DNA from: Minisyncoccota bacterium | GTDB lineage: Bacteria > Patescibacteriota > Minisyncoccia > Phycocordibacterales > GCA-2747955 | Direction of reading: 5' to 3' | NCBI GenBank assembly: GCA_023143935.1 | Contig: JAGLGQ010000049.1 | Coordinates: forward strand, 1-10,252 | DNA length: 10,252 nucleotides | In this document: positions 1-10,252 of the stretch, in pieces | Layout: every line of letters starts with the position of its first letter | Numbering within the stretch: the first letter of the stretch is position 1 | Translations under genes and position numbers: made by a program | Notes under the pieces: model-generated | The model's database searches: none | What the model saw: only the letters and a program-made list of their open reading frames with translations | What the model was told of the DNA's origin: nothing

Positions 1-1518
1 AAAGATATAAAATCTTTTTTAATAAAAAAAGGAGTAAAATTTAATTCTGAAACTGATACGGAAGTTATTGCTCAATTAATTGAGTATAATTATCGGGGTG
101 ATTTAAAAAAAGCAGTTTTAAAAAGTTTAAAATCTATAAAAGGAGCTTTTGCTGTAGCAGTATTTTCTAAAGATGAAAATCGTTTGATTGGTTTTAAAAA
201 AGGAAGTCCGTTGGTATTGGGTATTGTAAATGGAGATGAACCAGAGTTTATTTTATCTTCTGATATTTCTGCTTTTGTTTCTAAAACCAAAAAAGTAATT
301 TATTTGCAAGATGGTGAAATGGTGGATATTTTTGATGGTAAATTTAAATTTTTTGATTTTTGTAATGAAATAAAAAAAGAAAAAATACAAACTATAAATT
401 GGGACGTTGGTTCTATTTCTAAAAATGGATACAAACATTTTTTAATTAAAGAAATTATGGAACAACCGGAAACTATAAAAGATTCGATTCGTGGTCGGTT
501 AATTTATGAAACGGGAGATATAAAGTTCGGTGGATTAGAAGAAATTCAAAATAGATTAAAAAAAATAAATAGAGTTGTAATTGTAGGAATTGGAACATCG
601 GCATATTCTGCGATGTTGGGAGAAATTTATTTTGAAGAAATATCAAGAATGCCCACAAAAGTAGAACTTTCTCCAGAATTTAGATATAAAGATATAGTTT
701 TAGATAAAAATACATGGGTTATTGCGATGTCACAATCAGGAGAGACTGCTGACACTATCGCTGCGATAAAAGAAGCTAAAAGAAAGGGAGCTTTGGTTAC
801 GGGTATTGTAAATTCCGTTGGTTCTACTATTTCACGAATTACAGATGCAGGTGTTTATAATCATATAGGGCCAGAAATTTCTGTAGCATCCACAAAAGCT
901 TTTACTTCTCAATCTGTTCTATTACTTATGCATGCTTTAATGTTAGGTAGATTACAGGGAAAAATTTCTTTACAAAAAGCTCAAAAAATTATTTCAGAAA
1001 TTAACAAACTGCCAGCGTTAATAGAAAAAACATTAAAAGAAAAAGATAAAATAAAGAAAATTGCAAAAAAATATATAAAACATAAAAATTTATTTTATAT
1101 TGGAAGAAAATATAATTATCCTACGGCACTAGAGGGAGCTTTAAAAATAAAAGAATTAGCCTATATTCACGCAGAAGGTATGGCCGGTGGAGAATTAAAA
1201 CATGGATTTATAGCATTGGTGGATAAAAACATGCCTACTGTTGCAATTGCCACAAAAGATTCTATTTACGAAAAACAAATATCAAATATTGAAGAAGTAA
1301 GAGCAAGGGGTGGAAAAGTATTTTCTATTGCAACAAAAGGCGATAAAAAAATAAAAGAAATTTCAGATGATGTAATTTATATACCAAAGGTTTCCGAGGA
1401 ATTATCACCAATTTTAAATACAGCTGTTTTACAACTTTTAGCATATTATACTAGTGATTTAAAGGGTCTTGATGTTGATCAACCAAGGAATTTAGCAAAA
1501 TCCGTAACTGTTGAATAA
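1..1518 (+). CDS. glmS: Glutamine--fructose-6-phosphate aminotransferase (isomerizing), 5'-truncated by window edge
   Basis: GlmS converts fructose-6-P and glutamine to glucosamine-6-P and glutamate, the first committed step to UDP-GlcNAc, in the cytosol. The frame is open from base 1, giving 505 residues; the family is about 600, so roughly 100 N-terminal residues, including the catalytic Cys1, lie outside the window. The remaining glutaminase part shows FNSETDTEVIAQLIEY (window residues 14-29) and GSPLVLGI. Two SIS sugar-isomerase domains follow: GIGTSAYSA, the phosphosugar-binding SQSGET, VASTKAFTSQ, then ALEGALKIKELAYIHAEG and GELKHG. The C-terminus DVDQPRNLAKSVTVE is the canonical GlmS end. 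An internal TTG at 184 is not a start, because conserved GlmS sequence precedes it in frame. Its product would feed the UDP-HexNAc-using operon downstream, although it appears to be a separate transcript. No glmS ribozyme can be assessed, as the 5' region is missing. Confidence 0.97.
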   Translation, partial: KDIKSFLIKKGVKFNSETDTEVIAQLIEYNYRGDLKKAVLKSLKSIKGAFAVAVFSKDENRLIGFKKGSPLVLGIVNGDEPEFILSSDISAFVSKTKKVIYLQDGEMVDIFDGKFKFFDFCNEIKKEKIQTINWDVGSISKNGYKHFLIKEIMEQPETIKDSIRGRLIYETGDIKFGGLEEIQNRLKKINRVVIVGIGTSAYSAMLGEIYFEEISRMPTKVELSPEFRYKDIVLDKNTWVIAMSQSGETADTIAAIKEAKRKGALVTGIVNSVGSTISRITDAGVYNHIGPEISVASTKAFTSQSVLLLMHALMLGRLQGKISLQKAQKIISEINKLPALIEKTLKEKDKIKKIAKKYIKHKNLFYIGRKYNYPTALEGALKIKELAYIHAEGMAGGELKHGFIALVDKNMPTVAIATKDSIYEKQISNIEEVRARGGKVFSIATKGDKKIKEISDDVIYIPKVSEELSPILNTAVLQLLAYYTSDLKGLDVDQPRNLAKSVTVE

Positions 1519-1549: not shown

Positions 1550-1573
1550 CCCCAGATTTAGGGTTTTTTTTTT
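1550..1573 (+). terminator. Weak intrinsic terminator after glmS
   Basis: CCC(C) at 1550-1553 can pair with GGG at 1561-1563 across a short A/T loop, directly followed by ten T residues (1564-1573). It lies about 30 nt past the glmS stop. The GC stem is only 3 bp, with imperfect A-T extension, so termination may be partial. The last two T residues are also the first two bases of the downstream TTGACA, so terminator and promoter overlap. Confidence 0.4.
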
Positions 1574-1600
1574 GACATATAAATACATAAATGTAATACT
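1572..1600 (+). promoter_or_regulatory. Promoter P1 of the polysaccharide operon
   Basis: Perfect -35 TTGACA at 1572-1577, a 17-bp spacer, and -10 AATACT at 1595-1600 preceded by TGT, which makes an extended -10 (TGn). The -35 box is fed by a ten-T tract that could act like an UP element. Predicted transcription start is near 1607, giving a leader of about 95 nt to the dehydrogenase ATG at 1702. The -10 matches TATAAT at only 4 of 6 positions, compensated by the TGn and the perfect -35. Confidence 0.65.
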
Positions 1601-1622
1601 ATAAATTTAAGGTTTTTTTTTT

Positions 1623-1651
1623 TTGACATATATATATAAAAATGTAATACT
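1623..1651 (+). promoter_or_regulatory. Promoter P2 of the polysaccharide operon (duplicate of P1)
   Basis: TTGACA at 1623-1628, a 17-bp spacer, TGT then AATACT at 1646-1651: the same architecture as P1, 51 bp further down, with a 12-T tract just upstream. Predicted start is near 1658, leaving a leader of about 44 nt. GGGAG at 1662-1666 lies some 35 nt before the ATG, too far to act as a normal ribosome-binding site. Confidence 0.65.
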
Positions 1652-1701: not shown

Positions 1702-2988
1702 ATGAATTCTAATAAAAATAAACAAATTACGATTATTGGGCTTGGATATGTGGGACTTCCTTTGGCATTACTTGCTGAAAAAAAAGGATATGAAGTTATT
1801 GGTATTGATACCGATTCTAAAAAAATTAAATTAATAAATGATAAAATTTCTCCTTTTGAAGATGAAAAAATAACAAATCAATTAAAAAATTCATCAATTG
1901 TTGCAACTGATGATTTGACTAAAATAAAAGATTCATCAATTATTATAATTTGTGTTCCTACTCCAGTATATGAAAATCATATACCAAATTTGGAACCAGT
2001 AAAAGGTGCTTGTAATAGTGTTGCTCCTTTTATACAAAAAGGACAACTCGTAATTTTAGAATCTACTGTTAATCCTGGGGTTTCAGAAGATACAGTATTA
2101 CCAATTCTTGAAGAAAAAAGTGGATTGAAATGTGGAGAAGATTTTTATTTAGCTCATTGTCCAGAAAGAATAAATCCTGGAGATGAAAAATGGAATGTTG
2201 AAAATATAAATCGTGTTGTGGGAGCTTTTTGTAAACAAGGACTTGAAAAGGCAGTTGCTTTTTACAAAACAATTCTTTCTGGCAAAATAAAGCTAATGAA
2301 TTCTTTGAAAGAGGCGGAAGCCGTTAAAGTTGTTGAAAATTCTTTTCGTGATATAAATATTGCTTTCGTAAATGAATTAGCAATGTCTTTTTCTAGATTA
2401 AACATCGATATTGTAAATGTAATTGAGGGTGCAGCAACAAAACCATTTGCATTTATGCCTCATTTTCCAGGTTGTGGAGTCGGAGGACATTGTATTCCAG
2501 TTGACCCATATTATTTAATTGAATATGCAAAAAAAAGTGGATTTGATCATGATTTTTTATCGCTTGCTCGTAGAATAAATATTAAAATGCCTAGTTTTAC
2601 AGCAAAACAAGCCATGCTTGAATTAAATAAAATAAATATTCCTATTAATAATGCAAAGGTTGTTGTTTTAGGTCTTTCATATAAACCAAATATTGATGAT
2701 TGTAGAGAAAGTCCTTCATTTGAAATTATAAAAGCTCTTGAGAGATATGGAGCAAATATTGTTACTTATGACCCATTTGTTCTTGATAAATCAACGGCTA
2801 AAAATTTAGATGAAGCACTTAAAAATGCAAAGGCAGTCATTATTGCAACATCACATGACGCTTTTACAAGATTAACTCTTAATGATTTTATAAAAAATGG
2901 AGTAGGAGTTGTTATAGATGGTCGTAACTGTTTGTCAAAAGATGATTTTATTAAATCAGAAGTTGCCTATAAGGGAATTGGAAGATAA
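1702..2988 (+). CDS. Nucleotide-sugar dehydrogenase, UDP-GlcNAc/UDP-ManNAc 6-dehydrogenase class
   Basis: A cytosolic NAD-dependent enzyme that oxidises C6 of a UDP-N-acetylhexosamine twice to give the UDP-uronic acid. It has 428 residues, normal for the family. The N-terminal Rossmann domain has GLGYVG (13-18); STVNPG is at 121-126; the middle domain has K209 and N213 (AVKVVENSFRD); the catalytic cysteine is C264 in GVGGHCIPVDPYYL; the C-terminal UDP-binding domain carries GLSYKPNIDDCRESPS. The GGHCIPVDP form of the cysteine motif is typical of the UDP-HexNAc (WbpA/WecC/TviB-like) class, whereas UDP-glucose dehydrogenases have GGxCFPKD. GlcNAc versus ManNAc cannot be decided from sequence. 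First gene of the four-gene operon; it starts at ATG after AAAAATATT with no Shine-Dalgarno, and ends 10 nt before the synthase. It should supply the acidic sugar that the lyase in this operon needs as a cleavage site. Confidence 0.93.
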   Translation: MNSNKNKQITIIGLGYVGLPLALLAEKKGYEVIGIDTDSKKIKLINDKISPFEDEKITNQLKNSSIVATDDLTKIKDSSIIIICVPTPVYENHIPNLEPVKGACNSVAPFIQKGQLVILESTVNPGVSEDTVLPILEEKSGLKCGEDFYLAHCPERINPGDEKWNVENINRVVGAFCKQGLEKAVAFYKTILSGKIKLMNSLKEAEAVKVVENSFRDINIAFVNELAMSFSRLNIDIVNVIEGAATKPFAFMPHFPGCGVGGHCIPVDPYYLIEYAKKSGFDHDFLSLARRINIKMPSFTAKQAMLELNKINIPINNAKVVVLGLSYKPNIDDCRESPSFEIIKALERYGANIVTYDPFVLDKSTAKNLDEALKNAKAVIIATSHDAFTRLTLNDFIKNGVGVVIDGRNCLSKDDFIKSEVAYKGIGR

Positions 2989-2998
2989 TCGTATTTTA

Positions 2999-4399
2999 AT
3001 GGAGAATAAAAAAAAAGAACATATTCTATACAGAGACAGTAATCTTGGTAAATCTAATAGAATATTAATTTATTTTATTGTTTTTGCAATATTTATAATT
3101 CTTTTAGGGAAGATTCTTTTTGTTGAATCTGAGTATCACATTCTTTATCTTTATGGTGTAGCTGTTACTTCTGTATTATTTATTAATTTTTTTATAGCAA
3201 TATTTAAATATGAAGATCTTGCGATTCTCGCAAAAAATATAGAAATAGAAGAGAAAAATGCTAAAATAAAAAATAAAAGACCTTTGGTTACTTGTATGGT
3301 TCCTGTTTTTAACGAAGAGGTTCTTGTGGAACAATGTATTCTTTCTATGATTGTACAAACATATGAAAATAAAGAAATTATTTTTATTAATGATGGTAGT
3401 ACGGATGGTACAGCAAAAGTATTAGATAGGTACGCAAAAAAGGGATTAATAAAGGTTATACATCAAGAAAATGTTGGAAAAAAACGAGCGTTAGGTAGAG
3501 CAATGCGTGAAGCAAAAGGAGAAATATTTGCTTTTTCTGATAGTGATTCAATATGGAAACTTGATGCTCTTGAAAAAATAGTACCAATATTTAATCAATT
3601 TCCTGAAGTGGGAGCAGTTAGTGGTCATTTTAGATTAAAAAATTCAAGTACAAATATTTTAACACGAGCGCAGGATTCTTGGGCAGAGGGTCAATTTGCT
3701 ATTCGTAAAGCATTTGAAAGTTATTATGGGGTTGTTACATGTGTTTCTGGTCCTCTTGCTGTTTTTCGTAAAAAAGCTATATATAATTTTATTCCAGCAT
3801 GGGAAAAAGATTCTTTTTTGGGGCAAGAATTTAGATTTGCAACAGATAGAACAATGACGGGGTTTGTTTTGGGTGCAAAATATATTGGTGAAAAAGTAAG
3901 AAAAAAATATATAGATCAAGATTTTAAATTTATTTCTGAATATAAAGATGAAGATTGGAAAGTTGTTTATTCTAAATCTGCAAAAGCATGGACTGTTTTA
4001 CCCGATAATTTTAAATCTTTATTAAGACAACAAGTTCGTTGGAAAAAAAGTTTTATTCGTAATACTTTTTTTACAGGTTTATTTTATTGGAGATTTCCGA
4101 TTCTTCCTTCACTTGTTTATTATTTACATATTATTTTTGTTTTAGTAGGTCCTTTTATAGCTTTTAGACATTTAATTTTTTTACCTATGCGTGGTGATAT
4201 ATTTGCTGCAATTTTATATATTTTTGGAATTGTTTTTGTCGGATTTATGTTTGGGTTTGCTTATAAATTAGAAAATAAAAATTGTCATATTTGGATATAT
4301 AGACCAATTATGAGCTTACTTTCAACCCTGATGCTTTCTTGGGTTATATTTTATTCAGCATTAACTATAAAAAAAATGGTATGGTACAGAGACAGTTAA
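2999..4399 (+). CDS. Membrane GT2 polysaccharide synthase, hyaluronan-synthase/NodC-like
   Basis: A processive family-2 glycosyltransferase expected to polymerise UDP-sugars on the cytosolic face and extrude the chain through its own membrane channel. It has 466 residues: two N-terminal membrane segments (about 22-42 and 48-69), a GT-A domain starting at RPLVTCMVPVFNEE (94 on), then three C-terminal segments (about 366-389, 401-422, 433-457). Catalytic signatures are DGS at 132-134, DSD at 181-183 (UDP/metal), TDR around D283 (candidate catalytic base) and QQVRW at 344-348, followed by KKSFIRN as in hyaluronan synthases. The usual GDDR/ED motif is changed to ATDR, keeping the second Asp. I chose ATG 2999 over ATG 2918: the 27-residue extension overlaps conserved dehydrogenase sequence in another frame and resembles nothing in the family. 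The 3' end overlaps the lyase gene by 19 nt. The polymer cannot be inferred; chitin-like, hyaluronan-like or HexNAc-uronan are all possible. Confidence 0.9.
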   Translation: MENKKKEHILYRDSNLGKSNRILIYFIVFAIFIILLGKILFVESEYHILYLYGVAVTSVLFINFFIAIFKYEDLAILAKNIEIEEKNAKIKNKRPLVTCMVPVFNEEVLVEQCILSMIVQTYENKEIIFINDGSTDGTAKVLDRYAKKGLIKVIHQENVGKKRALGRAMREAKGEIFAFSDSDSIWKLDALEKIVPIFNQFPEVGAVSGHFRLKNSSTNILTRAQDSWAEGQFAIRKAFESYYGVVTCVSGPLAVFRKKAIYNFIPAWEKDSFLGQEFRFATDRTMTGFVLGAKYIGEKVRKKYIDQDFKFISEYKDEDWKVVYSKSAKAWTVLPDNFKSLLRQQVRWKKSFIRNTFFTGLFYWRFPILPSLVYYLHIIFVLVGPFIAFRHLIFLPMRGDIFAAILYIFGIVFVGFMFGFAYKLENKNCHIWIYRPIMSLLSTLMLSWVIFYSALTIKKMVWYRDS

Positions 4400-7300
4400 A
4401 AATAAAAAAAATTGAAATATTTTTTATAATAATAACTATTATATTGTTTTTTATTTTAGGAAATAAATATATTATTGATGGAATTACAAAGAGATTTGAA
4501 GTTAAGGAAATTTACAATAGCGTTAAAGAAAACATAATAGAAAAATTTACACTAGAGGAAGAAATTATTTGTGGAAATAATCAAATTAAAATTTCAGTTC
4601 AGGATGGTGGTTTGTGTAGAGAAAAAATTGATGAAAAAGATTATAAATATTTGGAAATTTATGACACCTATCCAAAATCAGTAAATGGAAAAGAAATTAT
4701 TTATGATTTTTTAGATGAAGGGGATATTGTCATTGCAGATGCTTATTTAAAAAATGAAATAAAAATTGAACGATACAATTCGGTAAAAGTCGATAAAATA
4801 ACATGGGAAGAAGATCCTTTTGGTGAAAGATATTGGAGATTTATTTTTTATAGTTTAAGAGATACACGACATCTTTTATATGCATATCAAGAAACTAAAG
4901 ACGAGAGATATAAAGATAAACTAATTGAAATAATAGAAAGTTTTATTGATAACGGAATAGATAAACCACATGCATGGGATGATTATCATGGAGTTGCTTT
5001 CAGAACGATGACACTTATAAATACATGGTGGAAATTACGAGAACAAAATGTGCTTTCTGTTGAAATGAGTGAAAAAATTCTTAAAGCATTGCAAAGACAT
5101 GGAGAATTTTTACTTGAAGAGGAACATTACGAAGAAAAGTATAATCATGGAATTAATCAAATGGTAGCTTTGTTGATTTTGTCTGTTAATTTTCCCGATC
5201 TTGAGGATGTTGATGATTGGTTTATTATGGCTAAAAAAAGATTACATGAAGGAATTAACACACTTGTTGATGATGATGGAATATTAGTTGAAAATTCTCC
5301 ATATTATCATTTTTATACATTAGAAAAATATTGGCTTGTTTTTAAATTTACAACAGAACATGATGTAGATGTTGGTGATGGTTTGAAAAAAACAGTGGAC
5401 AAAATGATTTCTTATGCTACTTATATTTTGCAACCAAATTTAGATTCTCCCATCCTAGGAGCTTCTCTTGAAAGAAGAGTTGGTAGAAAAGGTACTTTTA
5501 AAGAAATAGCAAAAGAAAATTCAGAATTTTTATATGTCTTAACTCAGGGAAAAAGAGGAAAACAACCGAGTGAATTGAGCAAATATTATCCAATCGGAGG
5601 ACAGGTAATTATGCGTTCGGAATGGGAACGGAAAACAAAATTTGAAAATAAATTTGAAGATCAAACACAAATTATATTTGATGTTGGACCATACAGAACA
5701 GCACATAGCGATTTTGATGCATTAAGTTTCGTTCTATATAGTAATGGAAAAACCTTAATTACAGATTCAGGTCTTTATACTTATGAATTTGAAGATGAAC
5801 TAAAGTCATATTTTCATGGAACTCGTGGACATAATACAATTTTGATTGATGGTAAAGACCAAAGATTTGGTACTGCAGTTTCTGGAAAATTTAAACAAGG
5901 TGGTGATTTTGTTTTTCATTCCGCCCAGCATAATTTATATCCTCAAATACATCACCAAAGAACGATGATTCTTTTGGGACATGATTTAGTTTTAATTATA
6001 GATAGACTTATTTCAGATAAAAAACATGATTATGAGCAATTATTTCATTTGTTTCCTAAAGCAAAAATTGAAATTAATAACACAACTGTAACTGCAATAG
6101 GAGAAAATGAAAAAGAGGAAATAACTATTCATCAACTTTTACCAAATAATATTAAATTATCATCAACAATAAGTGATGAAGATACTGGTAATGGTTTTTG
6201 TTCGTTTGAATATGAAAAAAAAGTTCCTTGTTATATGCTTTCATACAAACAACATGCTAAAAATACTTCTTTTATAACTTTATTAGAGATTGGAGATAAT
6301 AGTAATTATATTTCCGCTGAAATTAAAAATAATAAAGTTATTCTTAAAACAAAAAATAAAACATATGATATTAATTTAAATGAATTAGATGTAAAATTTT
6401 TAGATGAATCCTTTGTGGGGGAAAGTATTGTTAATGATTATAATTTAGAACTTGGTTTAGAAAATAATAATTGGTTTTTAAAAGGTAATGGAAGTGATAA
6501 ATTTCAAATAAATCAGGATGATAATGGAAAAATCATTATTATTCCAAAAAATTTAGATAATAATTCTATTTTTTCAGAAAGACCATATTATGTAGCAGAA
6601 ATTGATGATGTAGATTCATATTATTCAATAGATCAAAATATTTATACAGATATTCCAATGGATGATAAAGTTAAACAATTCAAAATTTATGAACAAGAAG
6701 ATTTTGTTCCAATTTTAGGTTATCATCATATAATTGAAGATGGTCAAGAAATAAAACATCCAACACTTGAAATGCATGTTTCAAATTTCGAAAAACAAGT
6801 TAATTATATGACTAATGAAATGGGTTGTAGATGGTTTACTTTTGGAGATATAATGGAAAATTATGTTTTGAAAAATAAAAAAATTCCCAAAAGAACTTGT
6901 ATAATGAATTTTGATGATGGACGAAAAAATCATTTTACTTTTGGATATCAAACTTTTAAAAAATATGGAGCAGTTGCAACATTTTATATTATTACTGACC
7001 GTATACTTAGCTCAGGGGGAGCATATATGAGTTTATCTGAATTAGATAAGTTACATTATAATGGTAACGAAATTGGATCGCATACCGTAAGTGCTAGTAG
7101 TCTTATAACAAATAATTATAATCAAAAAGATTTAATTTATCAATTTGAAGAATCAAAAAGGATGCTCGAAGAACAAGGATACAAGATAACAACTTTTGCC
7201 TATCCACGAGGTAATCAAAATCAAAAAATTGTAAATTTAACAAAACAATTTTATATTGCCGGAAGAGATACAAGCAAAGATAATAAATGGCGAGACAGGC

Positions 7301-8022
7301 GACCTTCTACAGTAAGTTTTGATAAAAACTATCTTTGGCATATGCATTATCATAAACCAGAAATTCAGACACCAAAGGAACTAGAAGAATCAATCGGATA
7401 CAATACATGGTGGCAATTTGAAGAAGGATATAGGATTGATAGAAATTATGATAATAGAGTTAGAACTTTGTCGTCCGTAAGACCGACAGATAGTTCTTTT
7501 GCATCTGTTTTTTTAGAAAAAATTGGTAATAAAATTTCAAATAAATTTATTGTTTCAAAAGATTCTGATTACGTTATAGAAGTTTTTGGAACTGTTAATG
7601 TTAAAAATTTATTTAGATATACTAATGTTGATACAATAAAAATTTATATTGATAATGTTTTGCAAAGAAATAAAAAAAATCTTACCGAAGAATGCGTATT
7701 ACACAAAGAACAATATTATTGTTTTTATAATGTCTCTGTAAGTTTAAAAGAAGGACTACATACGATATCAATTGAGGCAAATCAAAAAAATGTGAAAGTG
7801 GATAAATTTAGAATGTATAGACCCATGAATACACAAAATTCTTATAATTTAAAAATTACAGAATTAAAAAAAATTTCACCAAGAGAACATCCAAATCAAA
7901 TTGAAATAAACATAAAAAAACATTTTTCTAATCGAATTTTGATTTTAATTTATATAATTGGTATACTATTTTTATCAGCATTGATTTATTTGTTTATAAA
8001 TTTTAAAAAAAAAATAATATGA
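4381..8022 (+). CDS. Doubly membrane-anchored heparinase II/III-type lyase fused to a NodB-type polysaccharide deacetylase domain
   Basis: A 1213-residue cell-surface enzyme. Order: a cytosolic RQLKIKK start with membrane anchor 11-30; an alpha-toroid lyase domain about 140-380; the heparinase II/III beta-domain about 395-650; a NodB domain about 775-990; a beta-sandwich, perhaps carbohydrate-binding, about 1045-1150; a second membrane segment 1186-1206 ending NFKKKII. Candidate lyase residues are N255/H256 (NHGINQ), Y308/Y309 (SPYYHFY) and H442 (HSDFDALSF), plus D462 and GHNTILIDG with H484. The NodB part has LGYHHI (779 on) and NFDDG with D845/D846. Its second motif reads HTVSA (901-905) where HTxxH is normal, so a metal-ligand His is replaced by Ala905. 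FAYPRG follows. Expected chemistry is beta-elimination at uronic acid linkages and N-deacetylation, the latter doubtful. ATG 4381 is preferred to TTG 4339, which would add 14 residues inside the synthase frame. It overlaps the next gene by ATGA. Substrate unknown. Confidence 0.87.
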   Translation: MVQRQLKIKKIEIFFIIITIILFFILGNKYIIDGITKRFEVKEIYNSVKENIIEKFTLEEEIICGNNQIKISVQDGGLCREKIDEKDYKYLEIYDTYPKSVNGKEIIYDFLDEGDIVIADAYLKNEIKIERYNSVKVDKITWEEDPFGERYWRFIFYSLRDTRHLLYAYQETKDERYKDKLIEIIESFIDNGIDKPHAWDDYHGVAFRTMTLINTWWKLREQNVLSVEMSEKILKALQRHGEFLLEEEHYEEKYNHGINQMVALLILSVNFPDLEDVDDWFIMAKKRLHEGINTLVDDDGILVENSPYYHFYTLEKYWLVFKFTTEHDVDVGDGLKKTVDKMISYATYILQPNLDSPILGASLERRVGRKGTFKEIAKENSEFLYVLTQGKRGKQPSELSKYYPIGGQVIMRSEWERKTKFENKFEDQTQIIFDVGPYRTAHSDFDALSFVLYSNGKTLITDSGLYTYEFEDELKSYFHGTRGHNTILIDGKDQRFGTAVSGKFKQGGDFVFHSAQHNLYPQIHHQRTMILLGHDLVLIIDRLISDKKHDYEQLFHLFPKAKIEINNTTVTAIGENEKEEITIHQLLPNNIKLSSTISDEDTGNGFCSFEYEKKVPCYMLSYKQHAKNTSFITLLEIGDNSNYISAEIKNNKVILKTKNKTYDINLNELDVKFLDESFVGESIVNDYNLELGLENNNWFLKGNGSDKFQINQDDNGKIIIIPKNLDNNSIFSERPYYVAEIDDVDSYYSIDQNIYTDIPMDDKVKQFKIYEQEDFVPILGYHHIIEDGQEIKHPTLEMHVSNFEKQVNYMTNEMGCRWFTFGDIMENYVLKNKKIPKRTCIMNFDDGRKNHFTFGYQTFKKYGAVATFYIITDRILSSGGAYMSLSELDKLHYNGNEIGSHTVSASSLITNNYNQKDLIYQFEESKRMLEEQGYKITTFAYPRGNQNQKIVNLTKQFYIAGRDTSKDNKWRDRRPSTVSFDKNYLWHMHYHKPEIQTPKELEESIGYNTWWQFEEGYRIDRNYDNRVRTLSSVRPTDSSFASVFLEKIGNKISNKFIVSKDSDYVIEVFGTVNVKNLFRYTNVDTIKIYIDNVLQRNKKNLTEECVLHKEQYYCFYNVSVSLKEGLHTISIEANQKNVKVDKFRMYRPMNTQNSYNLKITELKKISPREHPNQIEINIKKHFSNRILILIYIIGILFLSALIYLFINFKKKII

Positions 8023-8948
8023 TAAAAAATTTACTTTCTCTAATTTTAATTTTATTTATTTTAAGTACTTTTTTGTATTTTAATTTTATTAATAATCAAA
8101 ATAATAATAATCAAAATAAAGAAATTGAAAAAATAAATATTAAAGTAGAAGAAAAAAAGGTGGAAAATCTTGAATTGCCAAAAGTATTTTTAAATAATTT
8201 ATTTGAAGATACTTTTGATAAAGGTGAAATATTAGAAGAAACTGGCAATATGGAAAAAAGCTTAAGTCCGCATTGGTGGGTAAATTCTGGGGCATTTTTG
8301 ATTCAAGAAAATGGAATTGCTAGAACCCTTTTTGGTGCATTGGAAGAAGATTCTGAATGGCAGATAAAATATAGTAATGGAAAAAGAGATATTCCAGAAG
8401 AAACTGATGGTGGTTATTATCCTCAAAATATTTTTAGATTAATCACAAAAAGTAAATGGCAAAATTTTCGACAAGAAGCTTATTTTAAAATAGTTAAATA
8501 TAATTTAAGTAATAGCAAACATCGTAGTGAATCAAATGGTTTATTATTTTTTAGTCGTTATAAAGATCAATATAATTTATATTATGCTGGAATTCGTGTT
8601 GACGGAACAGCCGTTATAAAGAAAAAAATAAATAAAGAATATTATATAATATCACAAGGAAAAATTTTTGATGGAGAATTTGACAAAAAAATAAATCCAA
8701 ATCTTTTACCAATAAATCAATGGATTGGTATTAGAAATGAAATTAAAACAGTTGATAGAAATAAAGTTGAAATAAAAATATTTATTGATGAAAAGAGAAC
8801 AGGTAATTGGGAATTGGTATTAGTTGCAATAGATGATGGAAAAAGTTATGGGGGAGAAGCTATTTTAAGTGAGGAGTATGCAGGAATACGAACAGATTTT
8901 ATGGATGTAAAGTTTGATAATTATAAAATTGAAGATATTACTGATTAA
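8019..8948 (+). CDS. Membrane-tethered extracellular protein, putative concanavalin-like jelly-roll domain
   Basis: A 309-residue protein of no family I can name with certainty. A signal anchor (about 4-24, no cleavage site or lipobox seen) is followed by an Asn-rich then Glu/Lys-rich linker (25-52). A beta-rich domain fills the rest. It opens with LFEDTFDKG (61-69), contains SPHWWVNSGAF and NGLLFFSRYKDQYNLYYAGI, and closes with EEYAGIRTDFMDVKFDNYKI. That opening and the alternating hydrophobic strands resemble ConA-like lectin/glucanase folds, which include DUF1080-type and several polysaccharide lyase families; this assignment is by pattern only. Translation is coupled to the lyase gene by ATGA (8019-8022), so it very likely works on the same polymer outside the cell, as a binding module, an accessory lyase or hydrolase, or an assembly factor. 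It is the last gene of the operon, and its TAA stop is also the first codon of the 21-bp repeat array. Confidence 0.75.
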   Translation: MIKNLLSLILILFILSTFLYFNFINNQNNNNQNKEIEKINIKVEEKKVENLELPKVFLNNLFEDTFDKGEILEETGNMEKSLSPHWWVNSGAFLIQENGIARTLFGALEEDSEWQIKYSNGKRDIPEETDGGYYPQNIFRLITKSKWQNFRQEAYFKIVKYNLSNSKHRSESNGLLFFSRYKDQYNLYYAGIRVDGTAVIKKKINKEYYIISQGKIFDGEFDKKINPNLLPINQWIGIRNEIKTVDRNKVEIKIFIDEKRTGNWELVLVAIDDGKSYGGEAILSEEYAGIRTDFMDVKFDNYKIEDITD

Positions 8949-9039
8949 GCTAAAAAGTAGCACGACTAAGTTAAAAAGTAGCATGACTAGCTTAAAAAGT
9001 AGTATGATTAAGCTAAAAAGTAGCACGACTAGCTTAAAA
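8946..9039 (+). repeat. 21-bp direct tandem repeat array (four units plus a 10-bp partial)
   Basis: Units are 8946-8966, 8967-8987, 8988-9008 and 9009-9029, with a partial at 9030-9039. Consensus is TA(A/G)-(G/C)(C/T)T-AAAAAGTAG-(C/T)A(C/T)GA(C/T). Units 1 and 4 are identical. The first three bases of unit 1 are the stop codon of the preceding gene. In that gene's frame each full unit has two stops (codons 1 and 5), because 21 bp is seven codons. One other + frame and one - frame are stop-free across the array. Arms 9008-9015 and 9030-9037 form an 8-bp perfect inverted repeat. There are no spacers, so it is not CRISPR. It lies in the 3' UTR just before the operon terminator. Confidence 0.9.
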
Positions 9040-9054
9040 TTCAATTCTGGTTTT

Positions 9055-9098
9055 ATAACAAAAAACAAGGAAGCAGGGCCTCCTTGTTTTTTTGTTAT
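9055..9098. terminator. Strong bidirectional intrinsic terminator closing the polysaccharide operon
   Basis: A left arm at 9055-9071 (ATAACA...CAAGGA) pairs with a right arm at 9081-9098 (TCCTTG...GTTAT), a 17-bp stem with one bulged T. The loop region AGCAGGGCC can add two more G-C pairs. The right arm carries seven T residues and the left arm six A residues, so both strands give a GC-containing hairpin followed by U residues. It lies 106 nt after the last operon stop and just upstream of the next promoter; no - strand gene is seen that would use the reverse direction. Confidence 0.85.
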
Positions 9099-9641: not shown

Positions 9642-10252
9642 ATGAACGAAATACTTTTTATTACCTTTGCATTTTTTTGCCTTTCTTTAGTTTTGGTAGC
9701 TTTTAGAATGGGTAAATTATATCTTTTTTTATTAATTTCTGTTTTTACAATTTTAATGAATATTTTTGTTTTAAAACAGTTTGAATTGTTTGGGTTATTA
9801 ATTACTGGTGGAAATATTTTATATGGTTCTTTATTTTTAATTACAGATTTACTTTCTGAGCATTATGGAAAAAAAGAAGCATTTAGGGCGGTTATTATTG
9901 GATTTTTAACTTCAGCTTTTTTTGTGGTAGCTTTACAATTTTTATTAGCTTTTGTTCCATCAGTAGATGATTTTGCGCAAGATTCACTCAATACGTTATT
10001 TTCAATTGCTCCAAGAATTTTAATTGGGTCAATGTTAGCTTATTTAATAGCTCAATCAGTTGATATTATTTTGTATGATAAAATTAAAAGCATAAAATCA
10101 TCAAAAAATTATTTATGGTTAAGGAATAATGGTTCAACTTTGATATCTCAAGCAATAGATACATTTATATTTACTTTGGTAGGACTTACGACTTTATCTT
10201 TTTTGCCTTTTGGTGGAGTAATACCAGTAGAGATATTTTGGGAAGTATTTTT
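9642..10252 (+). CDS. yhhQ: Queuosine precursor transporter, YhhQ/VUT (DUF165) family, 3'-truncated by window edge
   Basis: An integral membrane transporter that imports 7-deazaguanine precursors (preQ0/preQ1 or queuine) for tRNA queuosine. The frame starts at ATG after AAAATATT and is still open at the right edge (203 codons seen; the family is about 210-240, so little is missing). Family signatures are KQFELFGLLITGGNILYG (45-62), TDLLSEHYGKKEA (68-80), the PRI...SMLAYLIAQSVD segment (124-141), LWLRNNGST (158-166) and SQAIDTFIF (169-177). At least five hydrophobic segments can be counted. It lies 44 nt after the small membrane-protein gene and has its own extended -10 box there; read-through from upstream is also possible. 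In a reduced genome this transporter would suit salvage rather than synthesis of the queuosine base, but no biosynthesis gene is in view to test that. Unrelated to the polysaccharide operon. Confidence 0.92.
   Translation, partial: MNEILFITFAFFCLSLVLVAFRMGKLYLFLLISVFTILMNIFVLKQFELFGLLITGGNILYGSLFLITDLLSEHYGKKEAFRAVIIGFLTSAFFVVALQFLLAFVPSVDDFAQDSLNTLFSIAPRILIGSMLAYLIAQSVDIILYDKIKSIKSSKNYLWLRNNGSTLISQAIDTFIFTLVGLTTLSFLPFGGVIPVEIFWEVF

What the first reader, a model, noticed from the sequence alone, without database searches (positions are those of the whole stretch)
1702..8948. Minimal synthase-dependent exopolysaccharide operon that appears built for a cell without an outer membrane
Four overlapping or near-overlapping genes encode precursor oxidation (UDP-HexNAc dehydrogenase), polymerisation and export (HAS-like GT2), and surface modification or cleavage (lyase + NodB fusion, and a tethered jelly-roll candidate). 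Known synthase-dependent systems (alginate, PNAG, Pel) pair a GT2 synthase with a deacetylase and a lyase or hydrolase, but spread these over periplasmic and outer-membrane proteins. Here they are condensed into membrane-tethered proteins with no flippase, ABC exporter, outer-membrane porin or c-di-GMP protein in view. The enzymes agree chemically: the dehydrogenase makes the uronic acid that a heparinase-type lyase needs. If the host is a Patescibacterium, this could be an uncharacterised capsule or attachment polymer.
Basis: partly seen in the sequence, partly recalled or inferred. Interest (0 to 1): 0.8.

Follow-up and report, generated by a model that had tools for sequence, protein, structure and literature searches.

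The report
Surface-sugar operon of tiny episymbiotic microbes
Four adjacent genes look like a compact machine that builds an acidic sugar chain, pushes it out of the cell and trims it; relatives of the set turn up in scattered small-genome bacteria and archaea, and we found no description of it.

Summary
The four-gene operon is real: UDP-HexNAc-type dehydrogenase (1702-2988), processive HAS/NodC/PgaC-like GT2 (2999-4399), membrane-anchored heparinase-III-like lyase fused to NodB (4381-8022), tethered CBM66-like lectin (8019-8948), then an intrinsic terminator (~9060-9092). It is not unique to this contig. GT2 lies directly 5' of the lyase in 13 of 14 named loci that can be judged (9 titled Patescibacteria lineages, Diapherotrites, 3 without a lineage), and their lyases form one supported clade. 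In relatives the lectin is fused to the lyase protein, GlmU-type genes follow the lectin, and a GH18 gene replaces the lyase. I read it as a synthase-dependent surface-polysaccharide cassette with co-encoded trimming and holding proteins.

Corrections: the deacetylase half lacks the second metal-binding histidine in 28 of 30 window-type proteins, so deacetylation is doubtful. UDP-GlcNAc 2-epimerase is absent from 10 of 13 cluster genomes, pointing to UDP-GlcNAcA rather than UDP-ManNAcA. The contig is patescibacterial but probably misbinned. The cassette is rare (3 of 379 sampled genomes, the window's own included). Polymer, polymerisation and export are inferred, not shown. New variant of the known monoderm synthase-dependent kind.

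The parts
1556..1651 (+). 51-bp unit repeated 1.9 times, each copy with a TTGACA-17-AATACT promoter-like site with TG (1572-1600 and 1623-1651); possible tandem promoters of the operon
   Evidence: consensus match only, and promoter-like sites in the window were fewer than in shuffles (57 vs mean 71.6)
1702..2988 (+). UDP-sugar dehydrogenase of the UDP-HexNAc class (428 aa); C264 in GVGGHC, K209, N213
2999..4399 (+). GT2 polysaccharide synthase, HAS/NodC/PgaC-like: D132, D181xD183, D283-R284, Q344xxR347W348 (numbering from ATG 2999), SGPL motif, 2 N-terminal and 3 C-terminal hydrophobic segments; exact start uncertain
4381..8022 (+). ORF4, 1213 aa, hydrophobic segment at both ends: lyase + NodB + C-terminal beta domain
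4621..6384 (+). lyase half, heparinase III (PL12)-like; N255, Y309, H310, H442 line up with HepC
6691..7401 (+). NodB half of NodB2 type; D845, D846 and H901 kept, second MT2 histidine replaced by A905
7504..7926 (+). C-terminal beta-rich domain of ORF4 between NodB and the C-terminal TM; may be a binding module, not assigned
   Evidence: secondary structure; no Pfam family over cut-off
8019..8948 (+). ORF5, N-terminal TM plus CBM66/ConA-like jelly-roll; 1564 homologues at E<=1e-3
8946..9039 (+). 21-bp tandem repeat, 4.5 copies, starting at the ORF5 stop codon
   Evidence: no notable RNA fold (8940-9040, z -0.35)
9060..9092 (+). intrinsic terminator (stem plus T run)
   Evidence: -14.1 kcal/mol, z -3.7, 0 of 200 shuffles as low; the scan did not list it
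1..1518 (+). glmS, 5' part cut by the contig end: makes GlcN-6-P, an early step to UDP-GlcNAc; probably a separate unit upstream, link suggestive only
   Evidence: TIGR01135 562 bits

Best explanation
A synthase-dependent surface-polysaccharide cassette. The dehydrogenase oxidises a UDP-HexNAc (most likely UDP-GlcNAc) to a UDP-HexNAcA; the HAS-like GT2 polymerises it with a second UDP-sugar (probably UDP-GlcNAc) and extrudes the chain through its own membrane channel; the chain meets ORF4, anchored at both ends on the outside, whose lyase half cuts at uronic residues to set chain length or release the chain, while the NodB half binds or modifies N-acetyl groups; ORF5, a tethered CBM66-like lectin, holds the polymer at the cell surface. 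Shown: gene order, families, kept catalytic residues, predicted folds, conservation. Inferred: substrate, polymerisation, export, cutting, retention, and any role in capsule or attachment.
For: GT2 directly 5' of the lyase gene in 13 of 14 named loci where this can be judged (L016-L021, L024-L029, L044; the miss is L022), with a 16-nt overlap to a candidate start codon in 8 of these 13. A dehydrogenase-related gene directly upstream in 6 of these 13 (five full length; one of 279 aa in L044 below the family cut-off), and PF03721 over its cut-off somewhere in 10 of the 13 genomes. GT2 residues D132, D181, D183, D283, R284, Q344, R347, W348 invariant in 30 of 30 rows. Lyase N, Y and H columns invariant in 25 of 25 rows. 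ORF5-like domain fused to the lyase-NodB protein in P0034 and P0043 (seen in the alignment) and to a NodB C-terminal part in P0127 (by eye). GlmU-like uridylyltransferase gene just after ORF5 or its fusion in L018 and L020 (204 and 233 bits, below the cut-offs of the two-domain models, which these one-domain proteins only half cover) and a related sugar-1-P nucleotidyltransferase in L021. In G344, GT2 - NodB - GH18 - ORF5.
Against: No polymer or activity known. GT2 is far below the PgaC (136 vs 422) and NodC (125 vs 550) equivalog cut-offs, and its best single-sequence PDB rows are GalT1 and another putative glycosyltransferase (60.6 and 57.7 bits), ahead of HAS (48.6). The lyase scores far below the HepC cut-off (114 vs 700). 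Second MT2 histidine lost. No adjacent dehydrogenase gene in 7 of 13 loci; no GT2 upstream of the lyase in L022; no ORF5 profile hit in 5 of 13 loci that can be judged.
Confidence: 0.6

Rival explanations
1. A foraging or host-attack locus: the lyase, NodB and lectin act on polysaccharide of a host cell, and the GT2 with dehydrogenase is incidental or decorates the cell.
For: Lyase homologues without a homologous GT2 beside them exist in Myxobacteria and others: of the 20 loci among L030-L050 other than L044, one (L032) has a weak GT2 hit touching the lyase gene. L022 has a lyase of this kind without GT2 upstream. PL12 enzymes are classically degradative (recalled).
Against: GT2-lyase adjacency in 13 of 14 loci, in most with overlapping reading frames; GlmU-type neighbours; predicted tethering at the membrane; no uptake transporter within the four-gene unit of the window.
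Confidence: 0.15
2. The GT2 is not a polymerase but builds a short oligosaccharide, glycolipid or protein glycan which the ectoenzymes trim.
For: Best PDB rows by single sequence are glycosyltransferases that I take to be non-processive (from their names); equivalog cut-offs not reached.
Against: QxxRW, the D-R motif, SGPL and hydrophobic segments on both sides of the GT domain, as in HAS and chitin synthases (pattern recalled).
Confidence: 0.15
3. Hyaluronan- or heparosan-like polymer: the dehydrogenase makes UDP-GlcA, so this is a HasA-HasB type operon.
For: HAS is the nearest processive synthase with a structure; a UDP-Glc-DH-like gene lies about 3.8 kb upstream of GT2 in L020.
Against: The window dehydrogenase and those of L019, L021, L024, L026 and L029 score higher on a UDP-HexNAc dehydrogenase model than on any UDP-Glc dehydrogenase model.
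Confidence: 0.2
4. The deacetylase half works normally with a rearranged metal site, as in a PNAG/PplD-type deacetylase.
For: The MT1 aspartates, the first His, YPxG, the separate Arg and the MT5 Tyr-His are each kept in 28 to 30 of 30 rows; 2 of 30 rows (P0016, P0021) keep the second His.
Against: 28 of 30 rows lack it at +4, and none has it at +5.
Confidence: 0.4

Closest known systems
HasA-HasB hyaluronan operon (class I HAS; recalled)
   Same: Dehydrogenase next to a single membrane GT2 that polymerises and exports; GT2 motifs; no flippase needed (recalled)
   Different: Dehydrogenase is of the UDP-HexNAc class; lyase-NodB ectoenzyme and lectin are co-encoded
pga/ica (PNAG) systems with PgaB/IcaB
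   Different: Uronate lyase and dehydrogenase present; second MT2 His missing; no PgaA/PgaD or IcaD/IcaC genes seen in the window
Clostridial ccsZABHI cellulose operon (PMC7710045, outline with abstract seen)
   Same: Synthase operon of a Gram-positive with its own depolymerase
   Different: Cellulose synthase and GH5; different families
Heparinase III / HepC (PL12)
   Different: 20% identity; membrane tethered; fused to NodB; beside a synthase
CBM66

Membership tests
Class I hyaluronan synthase-type processive GT2 | D, DxD, D-D/R and QxxRW motifs (definition recalled) | tested here: met
   invariant in 30 of 30 rows
Class I hyaluronan synthase-type processive GT2 | makes a GlcNAc/GlcA polymer | not testable with these tools
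   needs enzymology
PNAG synthase PgaC/IcaA | NCBIfam TIGR03937 cut-off 422.3 | tested here: not met
   135.7 bits
UDP-HexNAc 6-dehydrogenase class | scores above UDP-Glc dehydrogenases | tested here: met
   326/255/232 vs 191/150/67 bits; PDB 275 (UDP-ManNAcA DH), 240 (Cap5O), 220 (NDP-GalNAcA DH) vs 117 or less for chains labelled UDP-glucose dehydrogenase; CalS8, not labelled, 166
UDP-ManNAc dehydrogenase (equivalog) | NF040825 cut-off 750 | tested here: not met
   326 bits
UDP-ManNAc dehydrogenase (equivalog) | UDP-GlcNAc 2-epimerase partner (PF02350) in the genome | tested here: inconclusive
   3 of 13 cluster genomes have it; the window's true genome is unknown
PL12 heparinase III | helical toroid plus beta fold with catalytic N, Y, H (residues recalled) | tested here: met
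HepC equivalog | NF045573 cut-off 700 | tested here: not met
   113.8 bits
CE4 / NodB2 deacetylase | MT2 with two metal-binding histidines (HTX2H or H(T/S)X3H, PMC10967932 passages) | tested here: not met
   28 of 30 rows, the window among them, lack the second
CE4 / NodB2 deacetylase | MT1 aspartates, N-terminal MT5, AYPxG | tested here: met
CBM66 | sequence family match | tested here: inconclusive
   no Pfam hit, fold match only
Gram-negative synthase-dependent EPS system | TPR/porin export and c-di-GMP control (recalled) | not tested
   no such family among the window's Pfam hits; no whole-genome search was made for them

The most novel reading that the evidence does not exclude
A modular polysaccharide cassette (synthase + swappable depolymerase: PL12-like lyase with dehydrogenase, or GH18/GH26 without a complete adjacent one, + tethered lectin) has been exchanged between Patescibacteria and DPANN archaea and makes a HexNAcA-containing polymer that these ultra-small cells use to stick to hosts; in the window type the NodB half has become a metal-free or re-tuned sugar-binding or deacetylating domain.
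Probability: 0.27. Interest if true: 0.82.

Novelty: new variant of a known kind. Interest (0 to 1): 0.6.

Why it matters
How ultra-small episymbionts cover their surface and hold on to hosts is open. In Ca. Southlakia epibionticum one essential gene and two neighbours whose loss slows growth are predicted EPS genes (SEML1_0081-0083; PMC10633639, passages); those passages do not say which families they are, and I could not test whether they match this cassette. The cassette is a short, expressible set of enzymes with a definite chemical prediction, found in both bacteria and archaea.

Tried and rejected
Own-bin searches (one hit only for GT2 family PF00535; no PF02350) were set aside as evidence because the contig looks misbinned. 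Idea that ORF5 is a GH16- or PL-type enzyme: no Pfam enzyme family; VIA rows 1-3 are CBM66, then come galactocerebrosidase (tied), a galectin-like protein, phage tail proteins, thrombospondins, lectins and beta-xylosidases; PL14 alginate lyase, ulvan lyase and glucanase rows appear in Foldseek, so an enzyme is not excluded. Idea that an epimerase supplies UDP-ManNAc: PF02350 absent in 10 of 13 genomes, which may be incomplete. Promoter scan: no enrichment.

Literature: no paper holds all of Patescibacteria, heparinase and polysaccharide deacetylase or DPANN, polysaccharide deacetylase and glycosyltransferase; none holds 4 of the 5 terms. Searches (20 of 68 listed; 1; 7; 15 of 66 listed; 3) listed nothing that, by title and start of abstract, describes the cassette; two searches were for PplD and Southlakia. 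Only an open-licence library was searched. Five papers were opened: PMC10967932 (passages), PMC10633639 (passages), PMC11665869 (term search, no passage found), PMC7710045 (outline and abstract), PMC6744442 (passages).

L023 starts inside the lyase gene. L022 and L028 end inside it, so ORF5 cannot be judged there. The tree left out L022 and L028 and used 9 chosen outside rows. The 30-row set of A3 left out the partial proteins P0023 and P0024. A2 and A4 hold chosen samples of the listed homologues (39 of 120, and 20 of 120 plus 9 locus proteins, besides the window).
Full report
Observation. The window is one whole contig (C74, 10,252 bp) of a 629,564-bp bin in 129 contigs. Four same-strand genes lie at 1702-8948 with a 10-nt gap, a 19-nt overlap and a 4-nt overlap between neighbours. 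Before them is a 51-bp unit repeated 1.9 times that carries two TTGACA-17-AATACT sites (promoter-like sites as a whole are not enriched), after them a clear intrinsic terminator (-14.1 kcal/mol, z -3.7). Upstream is glmS (cut by the contig end), downstream a small protein with two hydrophobic segments and no family over cut-off, and a queuosine-precursor transporter.

Conservation. I looked closely at L016-L029 and L044. GT2 lies directly 5' of the lyase gene in L016-L021, L024-L029 and L044, 13 of the 14 loci that can be judged; L022, a 3.3-kb contig titled Thaumarchaeota, has 478 bases upstream without GT2 signal, and L023 starts inside the lyase gene. Titles of the 13: Amesbacteria, Moranbacteria, Magasanikbacteria, Ryanbacteria, Berkelbacteria, Moraniibacteriota, Parcubacteria group, Zambryskibacteria, Saccharibacteria (9 Patescibacteria titles), Diapherotrites, two only 'bacterium' and one only 'archaeon'; their genomes measure 0.5-1.2 Mb. 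Close GT2 homologues also carry the names Woesearchaeota and Nanoarchaeota (P0298, P0312). The GT2 of L025-L027 is a divergent subfamily in the same place (161-176 bits; 30 and 32% identity for L025 and L026). A 16-nt overlap between GT2 stop and a candidate lyase start recurs in 8 of 13 (one TTG, one GTG); the window has 19 nt. Among the other 20 loci of L030-L050, only L032 has a GT2 hit touching the lyase gene, on its 3' side; L031 has a weak NodB hit just 5' of it. The lyase tree puts the window and 13 of these loci (L016-L021, L023-L027, L029, L044) in one starred clade (100/98) apart from 9 chosen Myxococcota, Thermoplasmatota and Actinomycetota rows; the root is a midpoint for drawing only. 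Inside the clade several forks are open, so transfer between domains is possible but not shown.

Gene content around it. A dehydrogenase-related gene lies directly upstream of GT2 in 6 of 13 (full length in L019, L021, L024, L026, L029; 279 aa in L044, below the TIGR03026 cut-off), not in L016-L018, L020, L025, L027, L028. An ORF5 profile hit at E<1e-5 lies in or next to the lyase gene in 8 of 13 loci that can be judged (L016, L018, L020 fused, L021, L023, L025, L026, L027; four of them weak, 23-32 bits), not in L017, L019, L024, L029, L044; L024 reached only the single-sequence search (25 bits). In the archaeal L019 a Laminin_G_3 protein sits in that place. In L044 lyase and NodB are separate genes. 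ORF5 is fused to the lyase-NodB protein in P0034 and P0043 and to a NodB end in P0127. GlmU-like genes follow in L018 and L020, a related nucleotidyltransferase in L021. In G344 the order is GT2 - NodB - GH18 - ORF5, with a 232-aa dehydrogenase-like gene before GT2 that is below the Pfam cut-off; in G119 a NodB gene precedes GT2 and a GH26-family gene converges on it, without ORF5 hit. This suggests that the depolymerase is the exchangeable part; two loci are too few to prove that the dehydrogenase goes with the lyase.

Rarity. Strong GT2 orthologues (E below 1e-200) occur in the same 3, two weaker ones (about 1e-63) in G119 and G344. ORF5 occurs in 4: the bin, G281, G344 and, without these partners on its 6.5-kb contig, G364. 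None of 4 same-genus and 5 same-family genomes has any ORF4 match.

Deacetylase doubt. In NodB2-type enzymes MT2 has two histidines (PMC10967932, passages). In 30 window-type rows (window included) the first is kept in 29; the second is A, S, G or T in 28 and H only in P0016 and P0021. Of the 10 rows of the other subfamily in A1, all 10 keep the second and 9 keep both. By pattern 73 of the 88 listed proteins P0033-P0120 have H[ST]xxH after residue 650; the 15 without it carry no PF01522 in the listing (the pattern can also match by chance). The four PDB sequences shown all have His where ORF4 has Ala. So N-deacetylation should not be taken as given.

Precursor. PF02350 (UDP-GlcNAc 2-epimerase family) is missing from 10 of 13 cluster genomes and present in those of L016, L020 (barely over cut-off) and L026, so UDP-ManNAc is unlikely as a general substrate; with glmS upstream here and GlmU-like genes in relatives, UDP-GlcNAc is the likely one. 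The tool gives no completeness for those 13.

Which organism? Tetranucleotide correlation of 2.5-kb pieces of C74 to the bin pool is 0.55-0.77 (whole contig 0.79), while 14 readable pieces out of 20 asked for gave 0.81-0.92 (the other 6 came as N); G+C is alike (0.266 against 0.25-0.31). GlmS of C74 has no match in 4 of 4 same-genus genomes, 35-39% identity in 3 of 5 same-family genomes and none in the other 2, but 61% in G090, which shares only the phylum. The nearest ORF4 homologue with a name is labelled Falkowbacteria (67%). The contig is thus patescibacterial but probably not from the lineage of its bin; transfer of the whole region is the alternative.

Verdict. Real, conserved, undescribed as far as the searches can tell, and best read as a monoderm-type synthase-dependent polysaccharide cassette. 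The chemistry is inferred.

Noticed in passing
L025:14522-18487: Downstream of a Moraniibacteriota cassette: a camelysin-family protein (PF12389, 36.8 bits), a second protein alike by eye, a signal-peptidase-like gene and an LTD-domain protein, reminiscent of a SipW/TasA matrix-fibre locus (names recalled).
   Followed up: partly
L138 (G344 C28) 8451-13492: GT2 - NodB - GH18 - ORF5 variant without the lyase.
   Followed up: partly
L145 (G119 C13) 7161-11876: NodB gene and GT2 in tandem, with a GH26-family gene converging on them.
   Followed up: partly
window 8946-9039: 21-bp tandem repeat (4.5 copies) between ORF5 and the terminator; purpose unknown.
   Followed up: no
window 1556-1651: Duplicated promoter-like unit with long T runs, 51-bp period.
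   Followed up: no
window 9642-10250; L124; L125: Three queuosine-precursor transporter copies in one 630-kb bin, one with in-frame stops; fits either paralogues or contamination of the bin.
   Followed up: no
L026:17209-21024, L023:4304-7216, L021:2673-7241: Large proteins with LamG, SpaA-like, PA14, PKD, beta-helix or RTX domains beside cassettes in other Patescibacteria.
   Followed up: no
L017:2-130: End of a transposase-like frame just upstream of the GT2 of a Moranbacteria cassette (by eye, not searched), a hint of mobility.
   Followed up: no
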